Assembly: GCF_947631555.1 (NCBI RefSeq)
Contig: NZ_CANRLT010000011.1
Coordinates: forward strand, 1-45,365
Direction of reading: 5' to 3'
Source: an uncultured Mailhella sp.
GTDB taxonomy: Bacteria > Desulfobacterota > Desulfovibrionia > Desulfovibrionales > Desulfovibrionaceae
Length of the DNA stretch: 45,365 nt
A model generated the notes under the pieces. It saw nothing but the letters and a program-made list of their open reading frames with translations. It searched no databases and was not told the DNA's origin. A program made the position numbers and the translations under genes. Below, piece after piece: positions 843 to 26,021 of the stretch (position 1 is its first letter; every line of letters begins with the position of its first letter).

Positions 843-2225
843 TTACATCATCTCGTTGAATGTTACTAGGCGGGCCTGGCCAATACTCTTCGCAAATTTG
901 CGGCATCCGTCCGTGAAGCCCGACTTCGAAAACACGATATAATGGCGGTTAGTGGCTGTGAGCAGGTGAGAACGTTCCACGAGTGTTTCCAGGACGGAGG
1001 CGTCCACGGAATCATTTGTCCACTTACATTCACAGAACAGCAGGCTACGTTCACCATCCGAGGCCACGATGTCGATTTCGGACTCGTTTTTTTTGCGGGG
1101 ATCGCTTCCCCACCAGCGTCCCTGCGACAGGAAGGTAAAGGGCAGAAGAGCCAGCTTGTTCTGTCGCCACAACCACTGCTTGCAGATTTCCTCGAATACC
1201 GGTCCCATGTACTGCGAGAACTGTTCCATGATACGAGCGCAGACAAGGTCAATCATGCCATTCTGTAACAGAGAGATATGCTTGGGAATGAAGCGATACC
1301 AGAAGCGGAACAAAGGATCTTCCACAGCGTAAATTGTCTTGCGCGTGGTCTTCTCTCCAAAAGGCCCTTCTCTACGGATGAGTCCCAGTGCTATCAGTTT
1401 ATTGAGGTGCAACGAACAAGCGCTGGTTTCAAGGTGTGTCTTAGAGGCAATCTCTGACAGACGTGAAGCTCCGGACGCAATAGCCGAAATAATGGCGTTG
1501 TAGGTTGAGGCTTCTCGTATCTCCTGTTTGAGCAGATTGGAGGGTTCTTCAAAGAGATAAGAGCTAGGTTCAAGCAGGCTTTCCTTGAGGTTGTCCTCCA
1601 GTGAAAGCGAGTTGTTCATCTGCAGGAGATATTGCGGAGTGCCACCGACGATTCCGTAAACAGCGGCCATATCAAGCGGGGAGAAGTCCTGAAAATATTC
1701 GCTCGCTTCAAAAAAGTCGAAGGGCAGGATTTTCATCTGAGCCGTTCGTCTGCCATAAAGTGGACTCTGGTAGCCCAACACTTGTTCTTCCATAAAGGAC
1801 ATGGATGAACCACACAGTATGAGGAAAAGCATCGAGTTGTTTTTGTATTCATCAATGAGCTTTTGCAGGATGGATGACACCGCAGGGTATGCCTTGGCAA
1901 GATAAGGATACTCATCGATGACAAATACGAGACGTTTTTTTATCGAGAGACGGAAGACGTACTCGAAGGCTTCTTGAAAGGTCTGAAAAACAGGCGTTAC
2001 GTCTTGCTGGGCGGTAGCGAGGATGGCGCGGCTCAGGTTTTCAAGATTTTGTTGTTCGCTCGACTCGATACCTGTGAAGAAGATACTCTCTTTGCCTTTG
2101 ATGAACTCACGGATGAGAGCTGTTTTGCCAACGCGCCGGCGTCCGTAGATGACGGGATGCTGGAATCTCTCCGAATGCCAGAGCTTTTCGAGCTTTCTGA
2201 GTTCTTCTTTTCTGCCGATAAACAT
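843..2225 (-). CDS. DUF234-type ATPase: P-loop ATPase, winged helix and PD-(D/E)xK-like domain
   Basis: 460 residues. The N-terminus is FIGRKEELRKLEKL, then Walker A GRRRVGKTAL (residues ~29-38) and Walker B LVFVIDEYPYL (~99-109), as in the archaeal-type ATPase_2/STAND-like family. Residues ~240-285 form a winged helix (SRLSEIASKTHLETSACSLH). The C-terminal DUF234-like region carries SEIDIVASDGERSLLFCECKW, which has the E-x-D...E-x-K spacing of a PD-(D/E)xK nuclease fold. Start at 2225 is supported by GGCAGAGGCG about nine bases upstream. A perfect palindrome lies 29 bases before the start, so the winged helix may autoregulate. The cellular role of the family is poorly known; a toxin- or defence-like role is inference. 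It is transcribed on its own, after the terminator of the five-gene operon. Confidence 0.85.
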   Translation of the reverse strand: MFIGRKEELRKLEKLWHSERFQHPVIYGRRRVGKTALIREFIKGKESIFFTGIESSEQQNLENLSRAILATAQQDVTPVFQTFQEAFEYVFRLSIKKRLVFVIDEYPYLAKAYPAVSSILQKLIDEYKNNSMLFLILCGSSMSFMEEQVLGYQSPLYGRRTAQMKILPFDFFEASEYFQDFSPLDMAAVYGIVGGTPQYLLQMNNSLSLEDNLKESLLEPSSYLFEEPSNLLKQEIREASTYNAIISAIASGASRLSEIASKTHLETSACSLHLNKLIALGLIRREGPFGEKTTRKTIYAVEDPLFRFWYRFIPKHISLLQNGMIDLVCARIMEQFSQYMGPVFEEICKQWLWRQNKLALLPFTFLSQGRWWGSDPRKKNESEIDIVASDGERSLLFCECKWTNDSVDASVLETLVERSHLLTATNRHYIVFSKSGFTDGCRKFAKSIGQARLVTFNEMM

Positions 2226-2478: not shown

Positions 2479-2506
2479 CCCTATGAGAAATCATAGGGTC
2501 GTTTTT
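2479..2506. terminator. Hairpin terminator at the end of the five-gene operon
   Basis: CCCTATGA-GAAA-TCATAGGG is a perfect 8-bp stem with a GAAA tetraloop. The T-run (GTTTTT) follows on the plus strand; on the minus strand, where the operon ends 45 bases upstream, it is followed by the weaker GCTTGATTTCATT. It may act in both directions. Confidence 0.65.
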
Positions 2507-2550: not shown

Positions 2551-5262
2551 TCAATTATTCCTCTGTTTTTTCCCCATCTTCACAGGATTGTTATTCCACA
2601 CAGGAACGGCGTTGGGATTGCCTTTAAAGTCGATATAATCAAAAATTTCCTTGAGGTATTTAAGGCTGTTTTCCAAATTTTTTCTTGTCCGCCCAGCCAT
2701 TTTAATTTTTTGATCTTTTTGATCGTTGAGGCTTTTCTCAATTTCTCCAATATACTTCTGAAGTTTTTGCCGGACCTCAAACTCCTTCGCTGTTGTATCA
2801 TGATCGTTCAAAAAATCCCTATGGTTATCCTGGAGTCGATATTTGAGGAGAACAAAAATCAGGGAAGCTGCGTTCCTGAACATCACCTTCTTGCTTGTGT
2901 GCTGTGCTTCCATCATGTCTATCGCTATCTTTAAAAGCCCATAGGCGGTTTTGTCGTCCAGAGCCTGCCAGGCTTCGGGGCGGTAATGAAGAACATTAAA
3001 GGCGGCCTCCATCGCAAAGGCACGGTTCAAGTTTAATCTGACAATGTACTGAAACAGCAGCCGGCACTCTTCCTTTTTATGGAAGCAGCGTCCGGCAGCC
3101 TCGACAACGTCCCTGTGCCCTATGGCATAATTTTTTGCATAGGGGAGAGTGTTGCTTACGGGAGGTACGCTGTTGGCCAGCAAGGATCCCTGCTGGCTGG
3201 TATGCTGCAAGTCCGATAGGCCTCGGCTCAGTGTGTCAACAAGAAATTTTTTAAAGCTTTCCGGCGTCTTCCCCCACAGGAAGGAAGCTTTTTTGATGAT
3301 GTTGGGCAGGTTCGCGTTATCGAGATTCCCAACACAGACAACAAGTTGCTTTCTTACCGTCTTCATCAGCTCTTCAAATTCCGGCTGTGTGTTTCCCTTT
3401 TCATCAATAAATTTGGGCTGACAAGAGGGTAAAAGCCGCTTTGTGCGCAGCGTTTCATAGTACGATAGAGAAGTAATATTTTTAGGAGCTGACACAAATC
3501 TTTGACAATCCCATATGAACTCATTCCGATCCACACTCTGGATGTCTTCAGAAAGAACAATATGTTCATCCTTTGGACAGAAAAGTTCTCCCTTCTCAGG
3601 TTCCGATGCTTCCAGCATTCGGGAAAAGTCGGGTTCCGTGACTTCCTGCATTCTGGAGAAGTCGAACAGCAGGTCTTCAATCGAATGATCAAGAGTTTCA
3701 AGCCGAACCAGCGCTAGTCCGCTTGCGGGTTTCATGCGGATGTGCATATTAATAGGAATATCCTTTAGCGGTACGAAGGGCAGGGGAACCGTTTCCTTCC
3801 GATAGGTATTCTCGTTTTCTCTTTGCAGCCAAGCGTCCAGATGGGAATGACGCTTCTGATAGCAGAACCCTTCCACCACGTTTTCATATTCCTGCCCGCC
3901 TTTGCAGACGGTGGACTCTACCATGTTCGTCCAACCCAGGTCGTTTTCTTTGAACGTCAGTATTTTCAGCTCGGGAAGTGTGTCAAGATAGGTGGGGAGA
4001 TGGTCACGCAGTCGTTCGCCGTACAGCTTTGCCCCTTCGGCCACAATGTCGGCAGCAGTTCGTTCCGGAAGCCATATGGTATCCGGGGCAGGCTTGCGGG
4101 AAATCTGCATCCTACCCGCACAGCTTTGGGAATCGAACCAGCCGGGCCTTTTCTGAGGAATAAGCGGGCCGCACATCACCACGCCGCGCAGTCCCTGCTT
4201 GCTTCTTTCCTTTGCTGTTTCCTGGATCGCTTTGCGGAAAAAGTCGCTCCAGCTGTCTGCGGCCTTCATGTCCGTATTCTTACGCGCTATCTGAAGGGAA
4301 AGCCATGGATTCTCTGTTGGCTGGACATGGGTTACCTGGATATCCTGCGCCTGGGGTTGGCGGGAGCCGAAGCGGTACACCGCTCTCTTTTCTGTCGCGG
4401 GCACACCCTGCCAGGAGAGCAGATTCTGTTCCGGTGTCCAGAGTTCCCAGGAACCATCTTTACGGCTCCAGATCTGTTGATGGCCCTGCGGGCTGTTCTG
4501 CCGCGTGAGTGATTCCCACACTTCGGGAAAACGCATCACCTGCTGCCAGACCTCTCCCTCGGAATCTCCTGAACAGCAGCTCCATGCCCAGTCCATGCCC
4601 GTGAGTGTCAGGCCCTTTCCTTTGCTGGAACGCCGCACAGGGACGGGATAGCCCTCGTCCTGCTGCAAATCAAAAGCCGTTACCTCAAGAAAATCAGGCC
4701 CCAGATACATGACAAGCATCCAGTCGCCGGAAGAGAGGTGAAAATCAGGCCCCAGCCCATGAAGCCAGCGCATGGCTGCCGCCACGGGCCGCCAGAGCAG
4801 CTGCACATGTTCCCTGCACTCGCCGAAGGCCCGGAGCAATTCTTCCTGCCCCATTTCATCGAGCCTATCGGGAATGGCAATCACCACGTCTTCATTCTTC
4901 CAGTCTGCCTGATGAAGGAGAGCGGCCAAATGCGCGTGCAGCGCCTTGGCCGTGGAACATCCGGCAGTTCCTCCGCTCGGTTTCCATGATGACAGTTTGT
5001 CTCCGTCCTGCACCAGCTTGCTCCAGAGAAGGCTTACAGGAACGCGGCGCAGTATCGTGCTGTCTGTAATCCTGGCTTCTTGCGGCCACATAAACCCTGC
5101 TTCCAACCTGTTTTCTGCGGCCGTTCTTCCGGTCAGAATTTCATCACGCCAGGTGCCCGGAAGGATAACAGAGGCTGGGAGAAAGTCTGTATCCTGCAGC
5201 GGAGTTCCTCCCACGCACGAATCTCTCAGTCCGAAGGCCGCCAAACCAAGAACGTCAGGCAT
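2551..5262 (-). CDS. Divergent Hsp70/actin-fold protein, last gene of the five-gene defence-like operon
   Basis: 903 residues. Residues ~125-168 resemble the Hsp70 nucleotide-binding domain: DVVIAIPDRLDEM matches the AVITVPAYF strand and LLWRPVAAAM matches the INEPTAAAL motif. The phosphate-2 loop, normally DLGGGTFD, is replaced by MYLGPDFLEVTAFDL (~184-198), and VVMCGPLIP (~360) stands for the adenosine motif VGG-x-RIP. The first phosphate loop near the N-terminus is not recognisable (LGLAAFGLRD). Residues ~500-903 are mostly helical with a lysine-rich tail and no known domain. The start lies one base after the stop of the preceding gene, with GGAGAGC inside that gene's end, so translation is coupled. 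Hsp70-like partners occur in some coiled-coil McrBC systems. ATP hydrolysis is doubtful, and a scaffold or sensor role is inference. Fold call is moderate, the rest low. Confidence 0.7.
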   Translation of the reverse strand: MPDVLGLAAFGLRDSCVGGTPLQDTDFLPASVILPGTWRDEILTGRTAAENRLEAGFMWPQEARITDSTILRRVPVSLLWSKLVQDGDKLSSWKPSGGTAGCSTAKALHAHLAALLHQADWKNEDVVIAIPDRLDEMGQEELLRAFGECREHVQLLWRPVAAAMRWLHGLGPDFHLSSGDWMLVMYLGPDFLEVTAFDLQQDEGYPVPVRRSSKGKGLTLTGMDWAWSCCSGDSEGEVWQQVMRFPEVWESLTRQNSPQGHQQIWSRKDGSWELWTPEQNLLSWQGVPATEKRAVYRFGSRQPQAQDIQVTHVQPTENPWLSLQIARKNTDMKAADSWSDFFRKAIQETAKERSKQGLRGVVMCGPLIPQKRPGWFDSQSCAGRMQISRKPAPDTIWLPERTAADIVAEGAKLYGERLRDHLPTYLDTLPELKILTFKENDLGWTNMVESTVCKGGQEYENVVEGFCYQKRHSHLDAWLQRENENTYRKETVPLPFVPLKDIPINMHIRMKPASGLALVRLETLDHSIEDLLFDFSRMQEVTEPDFSRMLEASEPEKGELFCPKDEHIVLSEDIQSVDRNEFIWDCQRFVSAPKNITSLSYYETLRTKRLLPSCQPKFIDEKGNTQPEFEELMKTVRKQLVVCVGNLDNANLPNIIKKASFLWGKTPESFKKFLVDTLSRGLSDLQHTSQQGSLLANSVPPVSNTLPYAKNYAIGHRDVVEAAGRCFHKKEECRLLFQYIVRLNLNRAFAMEAAFNVLHYRPEAWQALDDKTAYGLLKIAIDMMEAQHTSKKVMFRNAASLIFVLLKYRLQDNHRDFLNDHDTTAKEFEVRQKLQKYIGEIEKSLNDQKDQKIKMAGRTRKNLENSLKYLKEIFDYIDFKGNPNAVPVWNNNPVKMGKKQRNN

Positions 5263-5263
5263 A

Positions 5264-6955
5264 TCAGCTCTCCAGAAGTTGCATGAACAGCTCGTCGAGA
5301 AGCATGGTCAGCACGTCAATGTTCTTTGGCCAGAGAGAAGGATCGGCGGCAAGGCGGGCCAGATGTGTCTTCTCTCCGGCCTCGAAGTCGGGCTCTCCCA
5401 GCAGAGCGGCGTCAACGAGTACCAGGCCGGTAAAGTTCGCCACATGGTAGCGCATGTTGATAAGCTGCTCCTGAACCTTGAGTCCATGTTCGGCCGATTG
5501 CAGAATGTCCTGAAAGTTCTGCTTCACGGCGGAGGAAAGCGTGTGTACCGGCCATATGATGATGACACGGATCATATTTTTCCGCCCCAGCGGCTTGAGC
5601 ACAAAAAACAGCGTACCGCCTGTGCCTCTCAGGGAGCGCACGGTATCATGATCATCCGCCTGTCCTTCGTGTACCACTTCGAGTACAGCCTTGTTCGCTC
5701 CGCACGACAGCAGAAAGGGTCCTGGTTCCGAACCAGGCACCACACGGCTTCCCTGTACCTGTTCTCTGCGAAAAACACACCCGGCCTGAGCCAGCGGCTC
5801 AACGCGAACGCGGCCGTCCGCTTTTTCTGCCATGGTCATAAGCGACACGCCGAGCAGAAGTGTGCCTACATCCGCCCAGGTGCGTCCCTGCCATGCCCAC
5901 ATCCAATCCTCTTCATCCTGTTTGCGCAGAAGTTTCTGATACAGGTTCCATATCCTGCGGTAGCGGGTATCGCTTTGAAGCACATAGTTGGGCCGCACAC
6001 TGCTTTCAAGTTCACCCACGTCCTCCCAGACCGGGCGTTTCAAAAGTTCGGAACACATGCCGCCAAACCTGTTCACGTCCTTGGCGCAGCCGGTGTTTGC
6101 CTGACCGGCATAGATGACGGTCACATACTGGCGGCACTCGCGTAAGCAGCGCAGAAGAAAATCCCTGAGGACGCGGTTTTCCAGCGTATTGAAGGTTTCG
6201 CGCCGCGATATGGCTTGAAGCCGCTGTCTGTTGAGCGATGCCTTTTGCATGGCGGTCACGCCGGGTTGCCGGAAGTACCAATGCAGACAGCCGGAATCCA
6301 TTTCAGAGGCCTTCGTCGCCGGCAGAAGCCGCCGTTCGTGAATAAGTACCCGCCGTGCCGAATTGACCAGCTCCTGCACATGCTGCGGCATGGTTTCAGC
6401 GATAGACACGATGAGGGAGCGCTTCTGCACGTTCGGATTTCTAGCGTATTCTCGTATGTATTTCAGCAGCTCCGTCCACGAGACGACCGACGAGCTCTTT
6501 ATGTGCGCACTCGCATGCTGTACACAGTAATCAAAGAAGGACATCCAGTTCCGCACAGCCTGCTGCAGCTCTCCTTTGTCGTGCAGACTGCCTAGCACCG
6601 CTCCCTTCGAGCGAACAGATATCCTGTCGCGGTTCATCGCGTGGGATATGGTGAGCGTCATGGCTCCGCTGTCACGCGAGCCCCCGCTGTACGCTCCATA
6701 CCTTGAGGCGGCTATGGCGTGCGGCACGCGGTAAAGGCAGTACTCTACCTTCTCATAGGTATAGGGACGCCCCAGCGGCAGGAAGTCTTCGTGCCGGGAG
6801 TCCGTACTCACTCTGAAGCCTTGCGGTACCGAGAATACGGGGCTTCCACGGTAGTCAAGCTCCACATCCTGCCCCTCATCAAAGTTTAGCGTCTCGCGCG
6901 GACACCCCATAGACGACCATGGCCAGAGGTGGAACTGTATGTGCTCCGCACTCAT
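5264..6955 (-). CDS. DUF2357/McrC-like protein with eroded nuclease motif
   Basis: 563 residues. Residues ~250-267 (SRRETFNTLENRVLRDFL) carry the R-x-E-T-x-x-T-x-E-N-R signature of DUF2357 proteins, the McrC-like partners of McrB-type NTPases. RIWNLYQKLL (~334-343) matches the conserved segment before the C-terminal nuclease domain. Where D...(D/E)-x-K is expected, the sequence reads ANKAVLEVVHEG (~420-431): the E is present but the lysine is not, so this domain may no longer cut. The gene starts six bases after the McrB-like stop, with ACGAGG and AGGATA upstream. In McrBC-type machines this subunit binds the hexameric NTPase and supplies the nuclease or stimulates hydrolysis. Here a structural or regulatory role is inferred, with the nuclease supplied by the helicase subunit. 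Confidence 0.75.
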   Translation of the reverse strand: MSAEHIQFHLWPWSSMGCPRETLNFDEGQDVELDYRGSPVFSVPQGFRVSTDSRHEDFLPLGRPYTYEKVEYCLYRVPHAIAASRYGAYSGGSRDSGAMTLTISHAMNRDRISVRSKGAVLGSLHDKGELQQAVRNWMSFFDYCVQHASAHIKSSSVVSWTELLKYIREYARNPNVQKRSLIVSIAETMPQHVQELVNSARRVLIHERRLLPATKASEMDSGCLHWYFRQPGVTAMQKASLNRQRLQAISRRETFNTLENRVLRDFLLRCLRECRQYVTVIYAGQANTGCAKDVNRFGGMCSELLKRPVWEDVGELESSVRPNYVLQSDTRYRRIWNLYQKLLRKQDEEDWMWAWQGRTWADVGTLLLGVSLMTMAEKADGRVRVEPLAQAGCVFRREQVQGSRVVPGSEPGPFLLSCGANKAVLEVVHEGQADDHDTVRSLRGTGGTLFFVLKPLGRKNMIRVIIIWPVHTLSSAVKQNFQDILQSAEHGLKVQEQLINMRYHVANFTGLVLVDAALLGEPDFEAGEKTHLARLAADPSLWPKNIDVLTMLLDELFMQLLES

Positions 6956-6961
6956 GGTATC

Positions 6962-9136
6962 CTATGACCTCGTTACACCCTGCCAGAGGAAGATGCCTGT
7001 CTCTTTGGCGTTCTCTTGCGCAGCACGGAAGGCGTTCAGAAGTTCATTATCCTCAAGCTCGTTAATAACGCCTTCAATCTTTTCCAGACTGCGGTTCGAG
7101 GCGTCCATGGCCATGTCGCAGCCCCGAAGTTTGGGCAGAATTTTCTGTTCAACCTGATCGGCAAAGGCCAGCTTCATGTCTTGAGTATTGGACTGGACAT
7201 GGACACCAGGATAGTTGGCCACATAACGGTAAATGGCTTCCTCCACACGAAAACCGAAGGCACGGCCTATGCCGGCAAGCGCGTCATTGAGCGTTTTTAT
7301 CCACTCGCTGCAGGCCTGAGCGCTGCCCTGAATGTCATGTTTCTTCCATGCCTCCCATACCTTGCACGAGACAGCTGCCCCCTGCTGCAGGGCGTTCATG
7401 TCAGGCCTGTTCTGTACTTTGCGCTGTTCCGGCTTGCCAAAGCGCAGCACATTGGCGCGGTCGAGAACCTTGTCCGAAAGCGTCTGGGTGCTTTCGTCCT
7501 CGTTCATGGTGCCCACGAAGAGAATATTCTCCGGCACCCAGATGGACAGCGAACCATGTCCCGTACCGGTGTCAAGTTCGATGGTCGCCCGGCTGCGGGA
7601 ATCGGGTCTGGAGGGATCGACCGTGCGGCGCAGTTCAAGTTTGGAAAGGAATTCACTGAAGTAGTATTCCGGCCGTGCCAGGTTCATTTCATCGAGCAGC
7701 ACCATGAGCAATCCGCTGCGGACCTCGTCGTAATTAGGGAAACGATCGCTGTGGTAGGGATCCATGCGCAGAAGGCAGCGGGAAAGCTCTGTGGCCTTGT
7801 AGCGGCGTTCCAGATAGTTGTAAAAGCCGAAGAGATCCTGCGCGGAATCCCAGCGCGGCTGCACGGAGAGGATGACCTGATTGATGCCCATGAACTCCGC
7901 ATACTTCACCGGCAGCAGCGTCTTGCCCGTGCCGGAAACGCCGGCCAGTACCGTAAGGGGATTGATATCCTGACACTTGAGCGAAGTGTGGAACGCCTTG
8001 ATAGTTCGTTCGGGGAACTGCAGTCGCGCCCCATACAAGGCTCGCTTGAAGGCCTCGAGCATGTCCTTCTCGTTCAGAGTCTCCTCAAAGTGGTGATGCA
8101 CGAGTGACACGACTGGATCGCGCATGAGTTCTTCAAGGGCCGTGTCCTTTTGAGGATTGCCTCCGGCCATCTGCATTCCCAGACTTTGCACTTCTTTTCT
8201 CAAACCCGGAAGCTGAGCGTTCAGGGCCTCAAGCTCTGCCTTGGCCGCGGCAAGCTGTTTCTGCAGCGAAGCAAGATCACGCTCTGCGGTGTCCTGTTCT
8301 TTCTCCAGCTTCCGGCAGCTGTCTTCCAGCATTGCTTGCTGGCTTTTCAGCGCATCCAGCCGCGCAGAGGCGTTGCTGCAGGCCGTTTGCTCGTCCTGAG
8401 CCTGTTTGCGGAGTCCTGGAAGCTGAGCGTTCAGGGCCGAAGATTCTGTCTTGTCCGCGGCAAGCTGATTTTTCAGCGAGGCAAGCTCATGCTCCGTGGT
8501 TTGAAGGTCTTGCTGAAGCCCTGCGTGCCTCTTTTCCAGCGGATTTATTTCCGTGGACAATTTGTCCAGGCGGGATTGTTGTTCCGAAAGACGGGTAGCC
8601 TGTTCTTGTAAACGTGCATCACCGGCATGAATGGCGGCGGCTATTTTTTCCTTTCGTTCAAGAGCTTTCTGCAGACGATCATATTCCGCCCGAACTGCCG
8701 GCAGCTCCTCCTTTTTGTTCAGGGTATCCTGTATTTGTCCCTCAAGAGTTTCCAGTTCCTTGCGCCTGTCCTCCATTTTGGCTTCCAGCTCACGCGTTTC
8801 CACCTGCATGGCGACCAAACCCTCGATGGCACTTTCCAGATCTTTCCGGCGAGTCTCCAAGTTAAGGATTTCCTGCCGGATGGCGTCCTGCTCGGCACGT
8901 TCTCCCTGCACCTTGAGAAGCTCGCTCTTCTGATCCGTCAGCCACTGCTCCAGTTGTCTCTTATCGGCTTTCAGCAGCTCCAGTGCGCTGGAAAGATCCG
9001 CAATCTCGGGGTATTGCTGCGCGACACTGCTGATGCAGCGCCGCAGATAAAGCACCATGGCAAAGACAAAGAAGACGAGAACGACAAACGCCAGCATGGC
9101 GATTGCCCAGGATATCGGGTATGAGAGTTCGTGCAT
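6962..9136 (-). CDS. Membrane-anchored coiled-coil McrB-like AAA+ NTPase
   Basis: 724 residues. Order: one transmembrane helix (~8-31) followed by LRR; a long coiled coil (~40-320); AAA+ domain (~345-724). Walker A is GVSGTGKT (~399-406) and Walker B is LLMVLLDEMNLARPEY (~476-491), the DEMN-L-A form seen in McrB homologues that pair with DUF2357 proteins. The McrB signature loop MNTADRS is replaced by MNEDEST (~544-550), so GTP specificity cannot be assumed. The start has GAGGAA nine bases upstream and lies 11 bases after the previous gene. E. coli McrB has a DNA-reading N-terminal domain; here it is replaced by anchor and coiled coil, suggesting assembly at the inner membrane. The coil contains a 70-residue internal repeat. 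Partner assignment to the next gene (DUF2357) rests on known family pairing. Confidence 0.85.
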   Translation of the reverse strand: MHELSYPISWAIAMLAFVVLVFFVFAMVLYLRRCISSVAQQYPEIADLSSALELLKADKRQLEQWLTDQKSELLKVQGERAEQDAIRQEILNLETRRKDLESAIEGLVAMQVETRELEAKMEDRRKELETLEGQIQDTLNKKEELPAVRAEYDRLQKALERKEKIAAAIHAGDARLQEQATRLSEQQSRLDKLSTEINPLEKRHAGLQQDLQTTEHELASLKNQLAADKTESSALNAQLPGLRKQAQDEQTACSNASARLDALKSQQAMLEDSCRKLEKEQDTAERDLASLQKQLAAAKAELEALNAQLPGLRKEVQSLGMQMAGGNPQKDTALEELMRDPVVSLVHHHFEETLNEKDMLEAFKRALYGARLQFPERTIKAFHTSLKCQDINPLTVLAGVSGTGKTLLPVKYAEFMGINQVILSVQPRWDSAQDLFGFYNYLERRYKATELSRCLLRMDPYHSDRFPNYDEVRSGLLMVLLDEMNLARPEYYFSEFLSKLELRRTVDPSRPDSRSRATIELDTGTGHGSLSIWVPENILFVGTMNEDESTQTLSDKVLDRANVLRFGKPEQRKVQNRPDMNALQQGAAVSCKVWEAWKKHDIQGSAQACSEWIKTLNDALAGIGRAFGFRVEEAIYRYVANYPGVHVQSNTQDMKLAFADQVEQKILPKLRGCDMAMDASNRSLEKIEGVINELEDNELLNAFRAAQENAKETGIFLWQGVTRS
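8203..8486 (-). repeat. Two-copy intragenic repeat in the McrB-like coiled coil, offset 210 bases
   Basis: About 75 bases at 8203-8277 recur at 8413-8487 with scattered changes; both contain GGAAGCTGAGCGTTCAGGGC exactly 210 bases apart. They encode ALNAQLPGLRK twice, 70 residues apart, which is ten heptads. The copies stay in heptad register, as expected for a duplication tolerated by a coiled coil. Confidence 0.75.
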
Positions 9137-9147
9137 GGCGGTGTTCC

Positions 9148-10341
9148 TCAGTTCTGTTCCGGAGTCGTGTCTCTTGCCGGGACTGCAGGTTCATGGCTCT
9201 TCAAGGGAGACGATTTCATTTGTTCCAGGATCTCCCTCAAAGCATGAGCCTGTTCCTGCAGAAGCGTCACGGCGTCAGCAAGAGCGGCTCTGCTTTTCTG
9301 AAGTTCGGAATTCTCTTGATTAAGTTCCTGTGTGCTTTTTTCAACCAGCTGCTTCTTTGTTTTGATTTCTTGCCCTGTCCTCTCAAGAGTCTGCTGGAGA
9401 TCGGCAAGTTTTTCAGGCAAAGCTGCAACCTCCTGCATGACCTTGCTTGTTTTTGCCATGTCGTTTTGCATAGTTTGCAGTCCAGTCTTCACCTCTGAAA
9501 CAAGCTGCTGGGTTGCAGGTATCTGACTGGAAAATTTTTGGACCTCGTCCGTAAAGGCTTTGGACTGGTCGTTGAGCGCCTTGATTGCCTGATTCTGCTC
9601 GTTTTGCATATTCTCCCGTGCTTCTGCGAAAGCCTGAGCTTCCTGCTCCATGCTGCTTCCCTGTGCAGAAAGTGCCTTCTCTTTCTCTTCCAGCGCATCA
9701 ATAGACGCCTTGAACTTGTCAAGGGACGCTTTCACCTGATCGCTGAACCCTTCAAGCGTTGCCTGTTCCCGCTGCAAAAGTTCATTTAGCTTCTTTAGCT
9801 TCTCAGCTTCTGCCTGTAACTCAGCAAGTTCTTTATGCGCCTTCTCAACGCTGGATGACAGATTTTCCTGTTCGGCTGAAAGGCTTGTTCGCTCCCGTTT
9901 GAGACGCGCAATGTCGCTCTCAAGCGTTAGTCTGTCTTTTTCCGCCTGTTCTTTTTCCTTCAAAAGTTTTCCCTGCTCAACTTTGAACGACTGGAGCGTC
10001 TTGCGAGCGTCATCGCGCTCTGCCACAGCGCTATCACGCTGTGCAAGCACGTTGCGTACAGCCTTTTCCTGTTCCCGCAGTTCTGCTATTGACGCCTCCA
10101 GTGCTGTCTTCTGGGATCGCATCTGAGTCAAATGCTTCTCCAGGTCGCTATATTGCTGCTCTATGCCAGGCAGTTCTGCCAAAATACGCTGATGAGCCGC
10201 AAGGTCCTCTTCAAAATCGCTGCGGCGGCGTTCAAGATCCAGCACGCCCGCACCTATGTACACGCAAAGCGCTGCGGCGCCCAGTGCCCCAAGTCCCAGC
10301 AGCCAGAGTGGAGGGAAAAATTTCCCCAGTCCCACCTTCAT
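9148..10341 (-). CDS. Membrane-anchored coiled-coil protein of the defence-like operon
   Basis: 397 residues. One N-terminal transmembrane helix (~10-31, FPPLWLLGLGALGAAALCVY), then almost continuous coiled coil from ~35 to ~375, rich in E, K, Q and A, and a short proline-containing tail ending TPEQN. No enzymatic motif. GAGGAAATC precedes the ATG as part of a strong AAAGGAGG site, the best ribosome binding site of the operon. It lies between the helicase gene (21-base gap) and the McrB-like gene (11-base gap), which has the same anchor-plus-coil layout, so the two coils may pair. It resembles the generic Smc/EzrA-like coil type. Such proteins cannot be assigned a function by sequence; a tether, ruler or sensor for the complex is inference. 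Confidence 0.75.
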   Translation of the reverse strand: MKVGLGKFFPPLWLLGLGALGAAALCVYIGAGVLDLERRRSDFEEDLAAHQRILAELPGIEQQYSDLEKHLTQMRSQKTALEASIAELREQEKAVRNVLAQRDSAVAERDDARKTLQSFKVEQGKLLKEKEQAEKDRLTLESDIARLKRERTSLSAEQENLSSSVEKAHKELAELQAEAEKLKKLNELLQREQATLEGFSDQVKASLDKFKASIDALEEKEKALSAQGSSMEQEAQAFAEARENMQNEQNQAIKALNDQSKAFTDEVQKFSSQIPATQQLVSEVKTGLQTMQNDMAKTSKVMQEVAALPEKLADLQQTLERTGQEIKTKKQLVEKSTQELNQENSELQKSRAALADAVTLLQEQAHALREILEQMKSSPLKSHEPAVPARDTTPEQN

Positions 10342-10362
10342 GATTTCCTCCTTTGAGTTATA

Positions 10363-13300
10363 TTATGCGCGCATCTCGTTCCATACGTTCTGCACCCGCG
10401 CAACGCATTCGGGCAGTTCTTCCCGCAGCTGATAGGTCCAGAACCGAAGGATCCGCCATCCGGCCGCCTTCAGCTCCAGGTCTCGCCATAAGTCATCGCT
10501 TTTCCTATGTCCTCCGGCATCGCGGTGACAGGAGCCGTCCACCTCGATGTCCAGTCGACATTCGGGACGCGAGGGATCCCGCAGGGCAAGATCCAGCCTG
10601 CGATAGCCCACCGGAACCTGGGGCAGAGGCTGGAGGCCTGCCTTTTGCAGTGCTTCGGCCAGCAGCTTTTCATACGGGGATTCATAGGGAGCCCATTCGG
10701 TTTTCTGCGGAGGCGCCGGCCGTAGCCGCGAAGGTGCCGCCAGAAATTCGATGTGGTCAATGCCGCAGTGCGCAGCCCATTCCCGGTCGCCAACCATGTA
10801 GAGCATGGCCCGGGCGCGGCTCACGGCGACGTTAAAGAGATGGGGATTTTCCCTGAGAAAATGCAGCGAACCCGGCGTGAGGCCGTCACCCGCACAGAGG
10901 CTGAAGATCATCACATCGCGTTCGTCCCCCTGAAAGCCGTGCGCCGTGTCCACATGGACGTCTGCCCGTTGCAGCAGTGCCTGGTCGATGCCGGCAATTT
11001 CCAGACTGTCTTCTATACGCTGGGCCTGTTCCTTGAACGGCGTGACAATACCTATGGAGCCTTCGAAACGGGCCGTGAGCAGAAGTTCCTTCACCAGCGC
11101 TATCACCTGTTCCACTTCCTGAGGACACCAGCAGCTTCTTTGGCCTGCGCCGCGGCCTATCTCGCCCCGAACGGAGCGCCACTCCACGGCTTCCGAGGCG
11201 TTACTGGGACGGCGCAGCCTTGCCTCGTTGGTGCCCACCTGCAGTTTGCCGCCGTAGAAGAGTCGATTGGAGTATTCGGCAATAACCTCGGAACTGCGGA
11301 AGGTGCAGTCCAGAAGAAAGGCTTCGGCGGCATCCGAACCAGACGCTACATCGTAGAGGGAGTTGTCCGTAAACGTGAAGCGCAGATCCGCCATGGAAGT
11401 CATGTGAAGCTCGTTCTGCAGCAGGGCCTCACGGTCGGCAGTCATGCGCGAGACAAAGCGCAGCTGCCGGGGATCGCCTATGATTCCCGCCCGCTTTGCC
11501 CGGAACAGCAGCGGAATCGCCGAGGGAATGTTCGATTGACTGGCTTCGTCAATGAGGACAAGGTCGAACAAGCCCGGAACAAGAGGGATGAACCTTCCTG
11601 CGGACAGACTGGTCACGGCCCAGCAGGGAAAAGCCTGAAACACGACAGGCAGTTTTTCAGGCACTACCGTAAAAAGCAAATTCCGCACACTGGAAGAGGC
11701 CAGTGCGCTCTTTGCGGTGGAAAGTACCCGCTCCAGCCCCTTCACCTCCCCCTTGTCCACGTCCTGAGGCAATGTTCCGCGCAGCTCGGCCTCGCGGAGC
11801 TTTACACTGGGCAGCTGCTTTTCCACCAGCTCGCTCAGCCCGGCAACGTCCTCGCTCAGAGTTTCCAGTGAGGGAAGAGCTTTCAGACGTTTTTCCCGTT
11901 CTCTGATGTTCAGCTTCAGCTCAATCAGATGTGAAACGGACTTGAAGACTTCAACAAAGGGTTTCATGCCCGTGCGCCAGGAATATACGGGAAGCTGCGC
12001 ACCGTGCCTGCGCAAGGCCCTGCCCGCACGCCACAGGTCAAAAAGAGCGCTGAGATTACTCCGCAGGAAAAACGTGCGGAACGGAGTGTTATCCGCGCAC
12101 TTTTGCGCAAGATGGGCAGCCTTTCTGTACAGGGGCAGATCCCGTTCGTCTTGTTCGGAAAAAGAGGACAGATAGGGGCGCGCCGCAAGTTCTGCCTCAA
12201 GTGCTTCGCCAAGATCGCCGAGTTCCCTGCCGTACTGTTCCAGCTCTTCGGCCGTGAGGCTCTTTTCTCCGCGGTCGGCCAGCAGTTGGCAAAAGTTATC
12301 CAGGCGCCTTGTATCCCTCCCATCGTCCGTGGGCATGGACAGCATGGCTTTGAGAGCGTTGACCATGCCGAAGGAAAGATTCGGATCATTCTTGGCGTTG
12401 CAGCGTGTCACCAGGGGCCGGCCTGCGGTGGGCGTGCCCAGGCGTTCCATCACGGCATCGAGCGCCTTGTGGTTGTAGCTGGAAATCAGTACCGACTGCC
12501 CGCGCAATCTTGCGTTGAACACCGCGCTTGACACCACCTGGCTCTTTCCCGTTCCGGGCGGACCCTGGATGATGGTGAGCGGACGTTCCAGCAGGGAAGC
12601 GACGGCCCGTCGCTGCGTTCCGGTAAGCTTATGTTCAGCCACAGCCGCTCCCGAGGCGAGTCTGCCCTTTTGCAGTGGCGGCTGTCCTTCCGCAAAAATG
12701 TACGCCAGAGCCGTCTTGTCCAGGAGGACGTCTGGAGTTTTTGCTATGGTTTCAAGCTCGGCGACAAGGCCTTTGCTATACCTGCTGCAGCGGCTGGCCA
12801 CAATCATGGCTCTGTTGTAAAGACCGCTTCGACAGGACGGCTCAAGGGGCCTGTCCGACAGACAGCGCGGGTCAAGAGTTTCCCGTACCCGGCGATGCTG
12901 TGCCGAGGACAGAATCTGTGCCAGATGGAAAAAGTCCGGAGCCTCACCGCCATTGTCCGCAATTCCGGCTTCATTATCCGTATCGTCATCTTCGTCAGCA
13001 GAGGCATACATTCCACAGGCTTCCAGAAACGTACGCTTTTCGCTGCTCTTTGAAAAGGCGTCTTCGAGCCATGCTGCGTTGATGGACGGCTTTGTCAGAC
13101 GGGCTTTTACTTCCAGACCGGTTGACGTAAAACGATGATTCAGCACATAGCAGAACACGGGACGAAGAAGAATTTCTCCGTTTTTTCCTATAACGGCACT
13201 GATCGGATACCCCAGCATGAGCGTTGTGGTCGCAGAATCACGCCACAGGTCTTTAAGCGCCCCAGAGATTTCCTGAAAAGAAATATTTTTTTGCCACAGT

Positions 13301-13770
13301 ATGTTATCCCGTGGATACCAGCGTCCCACTCCGGATAGAAAAATGAACTGTTCCCCAAGGGTGTTCTGCCATACCTTCGCCGCTCCACCTTCCTCAAGGC
13401 GAAGGCACTGGATATAATACGCGATAAGTTCGCGAAAGAAATCCCAGCGTCCGCGCTCCTGATGGGCAAAAAGTTTTTTCTGTATGGTGTTGATACCAAG
13501 GGGGCTTTGCAAGGGTGACATATTCCTGAACGAGGGATTTGCCGCTTTACCATGAAGTTTGTCATTGATGAGAGTCACTTCTCCGCGCTTTACAAGATCC
13601 ATGCAGATACGAAAAATAATGTATGCAGGAATATGAAGTTTGGCTGAAAGATCCCATGCCAGGCTGCGTGGACAGGTATCGCCATAGAGATGTTCCAGAG
13701 CATAGAGAATCGCCGGGCGGACTTTTTGAACGGTGTCCGATTCTTTGTCTTCCCCACAGAACGCTGTCAT
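10363..13770 (-). CDS. SF1 (UPF1/Dna2-like) helicase fused to DUF559/Vsr-like nuclease domain
   Basis: 1135 residues, first gene of the operon. The N-terminal ~380 residues have no recognised domain (a winged-helix-like start is possible). Helicase motifs: I GPPGTGKS (~403-410), II LIDEAS (~739), III GDPRQL (~765), IV-like CTFRSS (~822), V HGFQGDERDV (~944) and VI NVAVSRAR (~979). The 330-residue gap between motifs I and II is usual for the AAA_11/AAA_12 (UPF1-like) group. The C-terminus (~1035-1135) is a DUF559/MTES_1575-type PD-(D/E)xK domain: SPYEKLL, RRLDLAL, LDIEVDGSCH, RDLELKAAGWRILRFW, with the expected D, E-V-D-G-x-x-H and R-D residues intact. It would unwind or translocate on nucleic acid (DNA or RNA unknown) and cut it. 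The ribosome binding site is weak (GAAGAAACTCTT), so the start is fair rather than firm. Confidence 0.85.
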   Translation of the reverse strand: MTAFCGEDKESDTVQKVRPAILYALEHLYGDTCPRSLAWDLSAKLHIPAYIIFRICMDLVKRGEVTLINDKLHGKAANPSFRNMSPLQSPLGINTIQKKLFAHQERGRWDFFRELIAYYIQCLRLEEGGAAKVWQNTLGEQFIFLSGVGRWYPRDNILWQKNISFQEISGALKDLWRDSATTTLMLGYPISAVIGKNGEILLRPVFCYVLNHRFTSTGLEVKARLTKPSINAAWLEDAFSKSSEKRTFLEACGMYASADEDDDTDNEAGIADNGGEAPDFFHLAQILSSAQHRRVRETLDPRCLSDRPLEPSCRSGLYNRAMIVASRCSRYSKGLVAELETIAKTPDVLLDKTALAYIFAEGQPPLQKGRLASGAAVAEHKLTGTQRRAVASLLERPLTIIQGPPGTGKSQVVSSAVFNARLRGQSVLISSYNHKALDAVMERLGTPTAGRPLVTRCNAKNDPNLSFGMVNALKAMLSMPTDDGRDTRRLDNFCQLLADRGEKSLTAEELEQYGRELGDLGEALEAELAARPYLSSFSEQDERDLPLYRKAAHLAQKCADNTPFRTFFLRSNLSALFDLWRAGRALRRHGAQLPVYSWRTGMKPFVEVFKSVSHLIELKLNIREREKRLKALPSLETLSEDVAGLSELVEKQLPSVKLREAELRGTLPQDVDKGEVKGLERVLSTAKSALASSSVRNLLFTVVPEKLPVVFQAFPCWAVTSLSAGRFIPLVPGLFDLVLIDEASQSNIPSAIPLLFRAKRAGIIGDPRQLRFVSRMTADREALLQNELHMTSMADLRFTFTDNSLYDVASGSDAAEAFLLDCTFRSSEVIAEYSNRLFYGGKLQVGTNEARLRRPSNASEAVEWRSVRGEIGRGAGQRSCWCPQEVEQVIALVKELLLTARFEGSIGIVTPFKEQAQRIEDSLEIAGIDQALLQRADVHVDTAHGFQGDERDVMIFSLCAGDGLTPGSLHFLRENPHLFNVAVSRARAMLYMVGDREWAAHCGIDHIEFLAAPSRLRPAPPQKTEWAPYESPYEKLLAEALQKAGLQPLPQVPVGYRRLDLALRDPSRPECRLDIEVDGSCHRDAGGHRKSDDLWRDLELKAAGWRILRFWTYQLREELPECVARVQNVWNEMRA

Positions 13771-13802: not shown

Positions 13803-13844
13803 ATATTAAACTTTCCAAGATGAGTATGAACCCTGATGAGTATG
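13803..13844 (-). promoter_or_regulatory. Candidate promoter and operator of the five-gene operon
   Basis: On the minus strand TTCATA (13830-13825), a 16-base spacer and TAATAT (13808-13803) form a plausible -35/-10 pair, 32 bases before the helicase ATG. The 10-mer CATACTCATC occurs twice, at 13844-13835 and 13828-13819. The second copy overlaps the -35 box and the copies are 16 bases apart. That placement suits a repressor or activator site. Confidence 0.4.
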
Positions 13845-13845
13845 C

Positions 13846-14340
13846 TCCCTAAAACCTCTCCTTGTCCAGCCGCGTGCCATCGTAAACGTGTCGGAACATA
13901 AAAACATCAATGATTTTATCTTGATATCGGCAAATTTCTTTCCCGTTTGGAAAGGAGAACAGGCATTCGCAGAGCTCATGAACATCGAAAGGGCAGATGT
14001 CTTTCCACTTGAACAAAAGGAAGATGGGGCGGTATGGCAAAACGAACCGTTTTCTTTGGCAGCGGGGGGAGGAGGGCTGATGATTGCGCGTTGGCTTACT
14101 GTGGCGGGATTTGTTTCTGGAACGTGGAACGAGGGGGAAAAGTGAATCCCAGGTACTTCGCCGATGACGGAAAAGCGCTGCATGAAGGAACGCCTGGAAA
14201 CGCTTTTCAAGTTTTGAGAGAGAAAGGGGCAAACCGTGTACATGCAGCAAAGGCGTTTTCCTGTGTAGGGAGGAAAAAGCTCTGCAGGACAAGGGAAAAT
14301 ACATTATGTGAAAGAATACTCAAGATAAGGAACGGCGAGA
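13846..14340. other. Gene-free stretch bordering the accessory region
   Basis: Several open frames run through here on both strands (for example 13888-14145 plus and 13849-14304 minus) but none has a ribosome binding site and none matches a known family. The minus frame ends in CRYQDKIIDVFMFRHVYDG, which could be a remnant. This is the transition from the more AT-rich accessory block to the GC-rich backbone. Confidence 0.35.
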
Positions 14341-14371
14341 AAAAAAAGAAAGCCCCGGACGGGCCGGGGCT
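14341..14371 (-). terminator. Rho-independent terminator of the RRM protein gene
   Basis: AGCCCCGG-5 bases-CCGGGGCT gives an 8-bp GC stem. On the minus strand it is followed by TTCTTTTTTTTCTC. Confidence 0.85.
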
Positions 14372-14388
14372 CTAGATGGCGCAGTGAC

Positions 14389-14955: not shown

Positions 14956-16962
14956 TCAGGATTGCTTGCGCTTGAAGAGTTTTTCCAGATCAGAGCGTTC
15001 CAGCGTGACTGCGCATGGGCGTCCGTGCGGGCAGTAGTCCGGCTCCTCGGTGAGAAGCCATTGCCGGACGAGTTCGTGCACGTCATCCGGGGAAAGGCGC
15101 TGCCCGGCGCGTATGGCTGTGGCGCAGGCGTGGTGCATCCATACGCTTTCCATGTCGTCCACGCGTCCGGAGAGGGCTTCGCGCAGGAAAGCCGCGGCCG
15201 CAGCGCGATCCATGTCCGCGGGGATGGCCTGAACGGTGCAGTGCCCCTGACGGCACACGGCTTCAAAGCCCAGACGAACGAGCGTTCCGCTCAGTTCCAG
15301 AAAACGAGCGGATTCTGCAGGGTGCAGGTTCAGTTCCAGAGGCGTGAGGAGCGGTTGTGCTCTGCCCTGGGAACCGTTCCGGCGAAATTTTTCGTAGAAG
15401 ATGCGCTCATGCATGGCGTGCTGATCCAGCAGGAGCAGGGTGTCATCGTTCTGGACAAAGAGCAGATAGGTGTTTGCGATCTGTCCTAAATAGCGGCAGC
15501 GCTCCAGAAAGTCGGGAAGCGCGTCCAGCCCTGAAGCTTTTTCTTCGGCGGCAGGAGAGGAGGGCAAGATGTCCGGGGTGCCGTATTTCGGTTCGCTTTG
15601 TGTAGTGGGGGCGGCTTTTTTCCTGAGCGCAGGCGTTGTGACTGCGGCGGGAGAGCGTTCGGGAAGACCATCGAATGCTAACGGCACGCGGGGTGAAGCC
15701 AGGGGCACACGGGAGGGCTGAACCGGGCGCTCGGCGTCCGGCCGCCTTGTGTACTGGAGCGGAGTTGCGGCTGGCTCCCGCAGGCCAGAAGCTGTGGACT
15801 CCAGCTTTTCTTCAGGATCGAAGCGTGGCCGCGGCAGAATGCGGGAGGCGTCGGCCTCGCCCCAGAAGCCCGGAGGGTGTACGGAGGAGCGTCCGTCTTC
15901 CGGTGTGCGTGCGGCGGCGCTTTCGGCAAGGCGCGCCGAAGCCGCGGGCACATGGGCGAGGGCATGGCTCACGGCGTGGAACACCGCACCGAACACTGCT
16001 TTTTCGTCGCGGAAGCGCACTTCGTTTTTCGCAGGATGGACGTTCACGTCCACTTCCTGGGGCGGCATGTCGAGAAAAAGGACGATCTGAGGATAGTCAC
16101 GGCTGGTGAGCCTGCCCTGATAGGCCTGACGGACGGCTTGAAGAATCAGGCGATCGTTGACGGCACGGCCGTTGACGTAGAACAGCATACGGTCAGCCCG
16201 CGGCTGGGAGGAGCGGGGATCCGAGGTCAGTCCGTGCAGGTGCATTCCGGATTCCGAGAGGCTGAACGGAAGCAGTGCGTCCACGATGGCCGGGGGCCAG
16301 AGGGCAGCAAGACGCCGGGGCAGCGGCTGCCCCGCTTCAAAGTGCAGAAGTTCCCGCGAGCCGCTGCGCAGGCGAAAGCCAGCGTCTTCCCGGGCGAGAG
16401 CCAGCCGGGTGAACAGTTCCTGAACGCGTTTCAGTTCTGTGGCCGGAGTTTTCAGGAATTTCAGGCGGGCGGGGACGTTGGAGAACAGTTCCGCCACTTC
16501 CACCAGGGTCCCGCGGTGGAGCGCTGCGGGGCGGACGCCTTTCAGAAGCCCGTATTCGACTTCGATACAGGAGGCTTCGCCGATGCTGCCGTCCTCGCGC
16601 AGGGGCGCGGAGGTCATGCGGAAGCGGGACACCGACGCGATGCTGGGCAGTGCCTCGCCGCGGAAGCCGTAGGATTCGATGTGCTGAAGATCGTCGAATC
16701 CGGCAAGTTTGCTCGTGGCGTGGCGGGTGACGGCGAGTTCGAGCTGTCCGGCATCAATGCCCTGTCCATCGTCCGTGACGCGGATGAGGGTCTGTCCGCC
16801 GTTCTCCACTTCGACATCCACGAACGTGGCTCCGGCGTCGAGGCTGTTTTCCACCAGTTCCTTGACCACACTTGCCGGGCGCTCCACCACCTCGCCCGCG
16901 GCGATCTGATTGGAAAGCTCCGGCGGAAGCAGGTGTATCGTTTTTCTTTCCGTATGCTTCAT
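14956..16962 (-). CDS. mutL: DNA mismatch repair protein MutL, endonuclease type
   Basis: 668 residues from MKHTERKTIHLLPPEL. The N-terminal GHKL ATPase shows motif I ELVENSLDAGA (~36), motif II DDGQGI and motif III GFRGEALPSIASVS. A variable proline-rich linker (~330-470) precedes the C-terminal dimerisation domain, which contains LLLLDQHAMHERIFYEKF, that is DQHA-x2-E-x4-E, the metal-binding endonuclease motif. CPHGRP near the C-terminus completes the site. MutL nicks the new strand after MutS recognition in bacteria without MutH. The frame is open upstream to 17055, but the family start with GGAG five bases before the ATG is at 16962. A 218-base gap separates it from the exonuclease gene upstream, so it may have its own promoter. 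Confidence 0.97.
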   Translation of the reverse strand: MKHTERKTIHLLPPELSNQIAAGEVVERPASVVKELVENSLDAGATFVDVEVENGGQTLIRVTDDGQGIDAGQLELAVTRHATSKLAGFDDLQHIESYGFRGEALPSIASVSRFRMTSAPLREDGSIGEASCIEVEYGLLKGVRPAALHRGTLVEVAELFSNVPARLKFLKTPATELKRVQELFTRLALAREDAGFRLRSGSRELLHFEAGQPLPRRLAALWPPAIVDALLPFSLSESGMHLHGLTSDPRSSQPRADRMLFYVNGRAVNDRLILQAVRQAYQGRLTSRDYPQIVLFLDMPPQEVDVNVHPAKNEVRFRDEKAVFGAVFHAVSHALAHVPAASARLAESAAARTPEDGRSSVHPPGFWGEADASRILPRPRFDPEEKLESTASGLREPAATPLQYTRRPDAERPVQPSRVPLASPRVPLAFDGLPERSPAAVTTPALRKKAAPTTQSEPKYGTPDILPSSPAAEEKASGLDALPDFLERCRYLGQIANTYLLFVQNDDTLLLLDQHAMHERIFYEKFRRNGSQGRAQPLLTPLELNLHPAESARFLELSGTLVRLGFEAVCRQGHCTVQAIPADMDRAAAAAFLREALSGRVDDMESVWMHHACATAIRAGQRLSPDDVHELVRQWLLTEEPDYCPHGRPCAVTLERSDLEKLFKRKQS

Positions 16963-17180
16963 GACGGCTCCGGGGAGTCTCTGCAACAACCCCGTGTTCA
17001 GCCTAGCGCGCTTTTCCTCTGCTGACAAGCGGAGGCTGCGTGAAGCCGGTCTCACCTGCAGACGTGGAGAGTTTTGACAGCTAACGGAAAGCTGCCAATT
17101 TTTCAGAGACTTCTTTCAAGGGAGGATCTTGGAGGATGCAGAGGGAAGGTTCCGAGGCAGCGAAGGCGACGGAAGGCTCG

Positions 17181-17837: not shown

Positions 17838-17919
17838 AAGTCATACCTTGTGCGTTGGCCTATCACGAAAGCGCCCGGGGAGCAAGTCCTGCGCAAGGCT
17901 GAGGGAGTGCCGTTTCCGT

Positions 17920-20007: not shown

Positions 20008-20016
20008 AGCTTTCTC

Positions 20017-22042: not shown

Positions 22043-22043
22043 A

Positions 22044-23966: not shown

Positions 23967-24030
23967 GAAATCTCCAGAAATTCTCCGTGCGGGCGGGAGA
24001 GGCATGGCCGGGAAGACCCCGGCACAGGCG

Positions 24031-25945: not shown

Positions 25946-26021
25946 TTTTTTGGCAGCCTTATCCCCTGTCCGTGGCCGAAAGGGTCGGGCGGACACGTTA
26001 TCTTCAAGGAGTCTTGTTGTC

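What the first reader, a model, noticed from the sequence alone, without database searches (positions are those of the whole stretch)
2551..13770. Five-gene membrane-anchored McrBC-like operon with helicase-nuclease and Hsp70-like subunits
Seen: five minus-strand genes with gaps of 21, 11, 6 and 1 bases: SF1 helicase with DUF559/Vsr-like nuclease; anchored coiled coil; anchored coiled-coil McrB-like NTPase; DUF2357/McrC-like protein; Hsp70-fold protein. Known: McrB-type NTPases pair with DUF2357/McrC proteins in type IV restriction, and coiled-coil McrBC relatives (the CoCoNuT group) can carry SF1 helicases and Hsp70-like partners. Inference: this is a defence system that senses nucleic acid or translation state at the membrane, then unwinds and cuts. 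There is no methyltransferase, so self-discrimination is not by host methylation encoded here. The exact five-part layout, with two anchored coils, may be a new or little-described subtype.
Basis: partly seen in the sequence, partly recalled or inferred. Interest (0 to 1): 0.88.

Follow-up and report, generated by a model that had tools for sequence, protein, structure and literature searches.

The report
Membrane-anchored Type III-B CoCoNuT operon
This is a five-gene bacterial defence-type operon of an already catalogued but experimentally untested kind (Type III-B CoCoNuT), and what the comparison adds is that two of its proteins carry conserved membrane anchors across many phyla, which the published description does not mention.

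Summary
In detail: five minus-strand genes at 13770-2551 with gaps of 21, 11, 6 and 1 bases, encoding an SF1 helicase-Vsr/DUF559 nuclease, an anchored coiled coil, an anchored coiled-coil McrB-like GTPase, a DUF2357/McrC protein and an Hsp70-like protein. The layout is not a new subtype. Gene for gene it is the Type III-B CoCoNuT of Bell et al. 2024 (eLife 94800): CnuH-CnuA-CnuB-CnuC-CnuD. Every defining feature I could test was met, and a GTPase tree groups it with an alphaproteobacterial III-B locus, apart from III-C, III-A and II. New here: hydrophobic N-terminal anchors occur in 70/76 CnuB and 60/67 CnuA proteins of 80 related loci in about ten phyla, but in none of five Type II/III-A CnuB references and 1/193 CnuH/C/D proteins. 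Flanking charges predict opposite topologies: CnuB's coil and GTPase inside, CnuA's coil probably outside. Likely mechanism: an inner-membrane GTPase complex that senses infection and switches on a helicase-nuclease. Defence function, topology and RNA-versus-DNA target are unproven.

The parts
10363..13770 (-). CnuH: UPF1/SEN1-like SF1 helicase fused to a C-terminal Vsr/MTES_1575-type PD-(D/E)xK nuclease (1135 aa); Walker A at 12564-12541, nuclease domain about 10671-10393
   Evidence: Pfam AAA_11/AAA_12/MTES_1575/DUF559; PDB profile hits SEN1, UPF1, DNA2; D1060, E1076, D1078, H1082 invariant in 57/57 homologues
9148..10341 (-). CnuA: N-terminal membrane anchor (about 10320-10240) followed by a long coiled coil, no other recognised domain (397 aa)
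   Evidence: coiled-coil families only; KD 1.97, GES 39.7 for the anchor; anchor in 60/67 homologues
6962..9136 (-). CnuB: N-terminal membrane anchor (about 9127-9044), coiled coil (about 9034-8102), McrB-like GTPase (about 8044-6965) with Walker A at 7942-7919 and NxD motif (NED) at 7504-7496
   Evidence: alignment A1: GVSGTGKT, LLDEMN, MNEDE; anchor KD 3.11, GES 54.4; PADLOC PDC-M26A 150 bits
5264..6955 (-). CnuC: Ig-like N-terminal domain (6955-6605), DUF2357 helical body (6571-5822), inactive PD-(D/E)xK-like fold (5806-5276)
   Evidence: Pfam DUF2357; AlphaFold2 pLDDT 91.8; Foldseek best hits E. coli McrC in McrBC 6ut6/6hz4, Ig domains for the N-terminus; no D or K at the expected catalytic positions in 53 homologues
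2551..5262 (-). CnuD: Hsp70-like nucleotide-binding domain (5262-4003), beta substrate-binding-like domain (3987-3640) and helical repeats (3627-2632)
   Evidence: AlphaFold2 pLDDT 87.2; Foldseek DnaK E=5.7e-12; profile hit to DnaK NBD E=7e-4
14349..14373 (-). terminator-like hairpin separating the mutL/RNA-binding-protein genes from the operon
   Evidence: 10-pair stem with T run; sequence read
2479..2498 (.). hairpin after cnuD, matching on both strands, possible operon terminator
   Evidence: 8-pair stem
13839..13868 (-). weak promoter-like match upstream of cnuH
   Evidence: 9 of 12 consensus matches; the number of such sites is not above chance for the region
843..2225 (-). neighbour, not part of the core system: ATPase_2/DUF234 protein with Mrr-like C-terminus, candidate defence gene PDC-S27
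   Evidence: PADLOC PDC-S27 E=1.4e-62; Pfam ATPase_2, DUF234, Mrr_cat

Best explanation
The locus is a Type III-B CoCoNuT (CnuH-A-B-C-D), a coiled-coil McrBC-type system; I put this identity at about 0.95. Most likely mechanism: CnuB, anchored in the inner membrane with its coil and GTPase in the cytoplasm, forms an McrB-like ring switched by CnuC. CnuC keeps the McrC body but has a dead nuclease fold, so it acts as activator and nucleic-acid binder, not as the cutter. CnuD, an Hsp70-like protein with a degraded ATPase site, serves as sensor or adaptor for foreign or aberrant nucleic acid or nascent chains. CnuA, the second anchored coil, lies beside CnuB in the membrane, its coil probably on the outer face, and could relay an envelope signal. 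Activation hands substrate to CnuH, whose UPF1/SEN1-like motor unwinds it and whose fused Vsr-type nuclease cuts it. Shown here: composition, order, motifs, folds, conservation, anchors. Inferred: complex formation, topology, trigger, target and defence role. The confidence below is for identity plus the general scheme (membrane-bound GTPase complex that switches on CnuH).
For: Feature-by-feature match to the published Type III-B (against 5, 23-27, 63, 71, 72, 77, 79). GTPase tree: the window falls in an 80-row group with the Rhizobium tropici III-B locus (SH-aLRT 87), sister to cyanobacterial III-C (99), then III-A and II. Gene order HABCD in 36 of 80 loci, ABCD-H in 10. Anchors in 70/76 CnuB and 60/67 CnuA, in 1/193 CnuH/C/D; present in CnuB of the III-B and III-C references, absent from 3 Type II and 2 Type III-A references. 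K+R after versus before the CnuB anchor: 60 to 0 with 5-residue flanks, so C-terminus inside; CnuA shows the reverse, 28 to 6. CnuC fold is McrC-like without catalytic D and K. CnuH nuclease residues invariant in 57/57. Accessory context: lower GC than the adjoining chromosome, CnuD found in only 1 of 18 other same-genus genomes, PDC-S27 neighbour, restriction or DISARM-like neighbours in relatives.
Against: No phage assay, biochemistry or structure exists for any III-B system in the papers I could find. Topology rests on the positive-inside rule only, and several Desulfobacterota CnuA flanks are ambiguous. Nothing here shows that the proteins bind each other. The target is undecided: the motor resembles RNA helicases, the nuclease family is mostly DNA-acting (family knowledge).
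Confidence: 0.6

Rival explanations
1. Soluble RNA surveillance, as Bell et al. propose for CoCoNuTs in general: CnuD and CnuC find viral or stalled-translation RNA and CnuH degrades it; the N-terminal hydrophobic segments are incidental or only tether the complex.
For: CnuD is Hsp70-like with a degraded ATPase site, as the paper argues for RNA binding; CnuH is closest by profile to the RNA helicases SEN1 and UPF1.
Against: The segments are strongly hydrophobic, sit at the N-terminus of two different proteins, and are conserved across about ten phyla while absent in Type II and III-A references, so an incidental origin is unlikely.
Confidence: 0.2
2. DNA restriction at the membrane: the GTPase complex recognises incoming modified or unusual DNA and CnuH unwinds and cuts it, in the way Zorya couples a membrane complex with a cytoplasmic tail to a DNA-cutting effector. 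This is a version of the best explanation that commits to DNA as target.
For: McrB/McrC core; Vsr/DUF559-type nuclease with invariant catalytic residues; anchored long coils; Zorya's ZorAB has an elongated cytoplasmic tail and a nickase effector in type II (PMC11890865).
Against: No DNA-recognition domain found; the McrC nuclease is dead; the CnuH motor resembles RNA helicases.
Confidence: 0.3
3. Both CnuA and CnuB coils are cytoplasmic and form one bundle at the membrane; CnuA is a scaffold, not an outside sensor.
For: Simple way for CnuA and CnuB to interact; residues after the CnuA anchor often begin with K or R in Desulfobacterota.
Against: Net charge of the 8-residue flanks favours N-inside for CnuA in 44 of 46 informative cases.
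Confidence: 0.35
4. A housekeeping or stress-response complex with no role against phages or plasmids.
For: No phage data; Hsp70-like and UPF1-like parts could serve RNA quality control.
Against: Patchy presence within genus and class, candidate and known defence genes next to several copies, GC drop.
Confidence: 0.1

Closest known systems
Type III-B CoCoNuT (Bell et al. 2024, eLife 94800, PMC11090510)
   Same: Gene set, helicase-nuclease fusion, separate coiled-coil CnuA, coiled-coil NxD GTPase, Ig-DUF2357-dead nuclease CnuC, separate Hsp70-like CnuD, no TerY-P, no CnuE
   Different: The published text puts III-B mainly in Alphaproteobacteria and mentions no membrane anchors; this one is in a Desulfovibrionaceae genome and has two anchored proteins
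Type III-C CoCoNuT (e.g. Synechocystis pSYSX, locus L142)
   Same: Anchored coiled-coil CnuB, DUF2357 protein, sister in the GTPase tree
   Different: Phospholipase D effector gene, no CnuA found next to CnuB, mainly cyanobacterial
Type III-A and Type II CoCoNuTs (L145, L148; L144, L146, L147)
   Same: Coiled-coil CnuB, CnuH-family helicase, DUF2357 protein
   Different: Kinase (TerY-P) genes present, separate CnuE gene, larger DUF2357 proteins in III-A, no CnuB anchor
CoCoPALM (named in the same paper)
   Same: GTPase with transmembrane helix and coiled coil
   Different: Characterised by pilus-assembly/signal-peptidase partners, none seen here; no CnuH or CnuD described for it
Zorya (PMC11890865)
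   Same: Works-like analogy only: inner-membrane complex with long tail plus DNA-cutting effector
   Different: No MotAB-type motor, no peptidoglycan-binding domain, unrelated proteins
E. coli McrBC
   Same: McrB-type GTPase and McrC-type partner fold
   Different: NxD instead of NxxD, dead nuclease in CnuC, cutting presumably moved to CnuH

Membership tests
Type III-B CoCoNuT | McrB-like GTPase with NxD instead of NxxD motif | tested here: met
   MNEDE in the window; NxD in all 80 CnuB sequences compared, though one search pattern was GTMNEDE
[quoted passage not shown]
   Coiled-coil families over about residues 37-330
Type III-B CoCoNuT | separate coiled-coil CnuA with no other domain | tested here: met
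   Only coiled-coil hits; plus an N-terminal anchor not in the description
Type III-B CoCoNuT | CnuH UPF1-like SF1 helicase with large insertion after Walker A | tested here: met
   SEN1/UPF1 profile hits; Walker A to DEASQ median 345 residues
Type III-B CoCoNuT | Vsr-like nuclease fused to CnuH, no CnuE gene | tested here: met
   MTES_1575/DUF559 at the C-terminus, no further operon gene
Type III-B CoCoNuT | N-terminal wHTH and OB-fold in CnuH | not tested
Type III-B CoCoNuT | CnuC with Ig-like N-terminus, DUF2357 and inactivated PD-(D/E)xK fold | tested here: met
Type III-B CoCoNuT | Hsp70-like NBD/SBD plus HEAT-like repeats in a separate CnuD | tested here: met
   (helical repeats seen in the model; not matched to HEAT by name)
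Type III-B CoCoNuT | no TerY-P kinase/phosphatase/VWA genes | tested here: met
   None among the window genes scanned; the contig ends 2.5 kb downstream of cnuD
Type III-B CoCoNuT | place in the GTPase tree | tested here: met
   Groups with R. tropici III-B, SH-aLRT 87 (moderate); III-C sister at 99
Type III-C CoCoNuT | PLD nuclease effector | tested here: not met
   Vsr-type nuclease instead
CoCoPALM | signal-peptidase/pilus-assembly partner genes | tested here: not met
   None beside the operon
PADLOC PDC-M26 | subunits beyond PDC-M26A | tested here: not met
   Only PDC-M26A (CnuB) matches; no other PDC-M26 model hits CnuA, C, D or H

The most novel reading that the evidence does not exclude
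[quoted passage not shown] That would be a transmembrane McrBC-type sensor, which no description I could find contains.
Probability: 0.35. Interest if true: 0.75.

Novelty: new member of a known kind. Interest (0 to 1): 0.45.

Why it matters
CoCoNuTs are predicted from sequence only. If a whole branch is anchored in the membrane, with a coil predicted outside, the trigger should be sought at the envelope and at phage entry rather than only in free cytoplasmic RNA, and simple fusion and deletion tests follow. The survey also widens III-B from mainly Alphaproteobacteria to Desulfobacterota, Planctomycetota, Verrucomicrobiota, Lentisphaerota, Kiritimatiellota, Spirochaetota and others, and shows a second gene order (A-B-C-D-H).

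Tried and rejected
New five-part subtype: rejected, published as III-B. CoCoPALM: partner genes absent. PDC-M26: only one subunit matches. CnuC as the cutting subunit: rejected, catalytic positions lost in all 53 homologues. Single-sequence Pfam, NCBIfam and PADLOC scans of CnuD: nothing; a profile and a fold comparison were needed. Profile searches of CnuC and CnuB against PDB sequences: no McrC or McrB hit, only coils for CnuB. Searches for later experimental papers on III-B, for PDC-M26 and for membrane-anchored McrBC: none found. Supplementary files of the CoCoNuT paper could not be read, so I cannot exclude that anchors are listed there.
Full report
What is there. A terminator-like hairpin (14373-14349) lies between the upstream mutL/RNA-binding-protein pair and the operon, and an 8-pair hairpin (2498-2479) follows the last gene. 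The pair mutL-RNA-binding protein is kept in most same-genus genomes examined, but what follows it differs, so the operon sits as an accessory block next to core genes. GC is 42-59% across the operon and its edges versus 58-66% over most of the adjoining chromosome. The window begins at base 1 of contig C11 of a 2.58 Mb assembly. A same-genus genome (G232) has a 19064-base contig carrying the operon, the same length as a record titled uncultured Mailhella sp., so the host is probably Mailhella or a close Desulfovibrionaceae relative (inference).

What the proteins are. CnuH: helicase domains and a C-terminal MTES_1575/DUF559 nuclease; the nearest solved relatives by profile are SEN1, UPF1 and DNA2; the nuclease residues D1060, E1076, D1078 and H1082 are invariant in 57 homologues, and the Walker A to DEASQ distance (median 345) shows the large insertion described for CnuH. 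CnuA: an N-terminal hydrophobic segment and a coiled coil only. CnuB: anchor, coil, and a GTPase with GVSGTGKT, LLDEMN and MNEDE, i.e. the NxD form. CnuC: model with pLDDT 91.8; Foldseek finds E. coli McrC (E 1.3e-5) and, for the N-terminus, Ig domains; at the positions expected for the catalytic D and K there is neither in any of 53 homologues (the positional assignment rests on fold and alignment, not on a superposition I could inspect). CnuD: model with pLDDT 87.2; DnaK is the best structural match (E 5.7e-12) and a profile match (E 7e-4), followed by helical repeats; the positions of DnaK's phosphate loop and catalytic residues look degraded, in line with the paper.

What it is. The paper on CoCoNuTs (PMC11090510) describes Type III-B by exactly this set: Vsr-like nuclease fused to CnuH, CnuA coil, coiled-coil NxD CnuB, CnuC with Ig-like domain and inactivated nuclease, separate Hsp70-like CnuD, no TerY-P. 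To test membership with sequences, I took reference loci by their gene content from plasmids: Synechocystis pSYSX (III-C, phospholipase D gene), Rhizobium tropici (III-B), three Type II and two Type III-A loci; typing these was my reading of their annotation. In a GTPase tree of 97 rows the window sits with Desulfovibrio and Mailhella copies (support 100), inside the group holding R. tropici (87), with III-C as sister (99; III-B plus III-C 95), then III-A and II. The tree is a quick one and deep forks inside III-B are open.

How widespread. One scan of 84,980 species genomes gave 214 relatives, 80 kept: Desulfobacterota, Myxococcota, Planctomycetota, Verrucomicrobiota, Lentisphaerota, Kiritimatiellota, Spirochaetota, Bacillota, Alpha- and Gammaproteobacteria and, as III-C, Cyanobacteriota. 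Order H-A-B-C-D appears in 36 of 80 loci (window included), A-B-C-D-H in 10, and two have C fused to D. The scan patterns included GTMNEDE, so the NxD count is biased towards conservation; the anchors, the order and the other proteins were not selected for. In the class, 17 of 297 genomes have a CnuB hit, of which ten (own genome included) are III-B by gene content; CnuD is in 1 of 18 other same-genus genomes.

The anchors. A hydrophobic N-terminal segment (mean hydropathy over 19 residues above 1.6) is in 70 of 76 CnuB and 60 of 67 CnuA; most exceptions are cut contigs, wrongly picked neighbours or values just below the line; in CnuH, CnuC and CnuD it is in 1 of 193. It is present in CnuB of the III-C and R. 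tropici III-B references and absent from the five Type II and III-A ones. The paper's main text and preprint mention transmembrane helices only for other proteins; supplements could not be read. Charge flanks place the CnuB C-terminus inside, as a GTPase requires, which serves as a check of the method (60 to 0); for CnuA they point the other way (28 to 6 by K+R at 5 residues, 44 to 2 by net charge at 8), so its coil is probably outside. Several Desulfobacterota CnuA flanks, the window's included, are weak on this point.

Function. Nothing has been tested. For defence: PDC-S27 neighbour; Type IV and Type I restriction, PDC-M16A and DISARM-like matches in four of eight large neighbours that I picked by hand (not a random sample); patchy presence. 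For mechanism I favour a membrane-bound, GTP-switched complex that activates the CnuH helicase-nuclease, with CnuD as sensor and CnuA as possible envelope relay. Whether the substrate is RNA or DNA is open. Zorya (PMC11890865) is a works-like comparison only.

Verdict. A complete Type III-B CoCoNuT: a catalogued kind, not a new subtype. The membrane anchoring of the III-B/III-C branch is the part worth following.

Noticed in passing
window 843-2225 (-): ATPase_2/DUF234 protein with Mrr-like C-terminus next to the operon; strong match to candidate defence family PDC-S27.
   Followed up: partly
L031 4392-5648 (-) and 13505-14761 (+): In the G183 relative two 418-aa ORFs with the same beginning, possibly a transposable element, lie on either side; the second splits cnuD and no cnuH is found, so this copy looks broken.
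   Followed up: no
L142 9854-19006: Synechocystis sp. PCC 6803 plasmid pSYSX carries what looks like a Type III-C CoCoNuT with a phospholipase D gene, in a genetically tractable strain.
   Followed up: partly
L096 11587-14700, L115 11587-14715: CnuC and CnuD are fused in one ORF in two III-B-like loci, recalling the CnuCD fusion of Type III-A.
   Followed up: no
L079, L081, L082, L083, L090, L097, L099, L103, L107, L116: Alternative gene order with cnuH last (A-B-C-D-H), mostly Verrucomicrobiota and Lentisphaerota, also Spirochaetota, Planctomycetota and a clostridial MAG.
   Followed up: partly
window 27326-31670 (+) and 14956-24441 (-): clpP, clpX and lon in a row; mutL, mnmE and a ccm cluster: ordinary core genes.
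   Followed up: no
window 26004-27368 (-) and 34067-35608 (-): Long ORFs without any Pfam match; the first overlaps the start of the clpP ORF slightly and may not be a gene.
   Followed up: no
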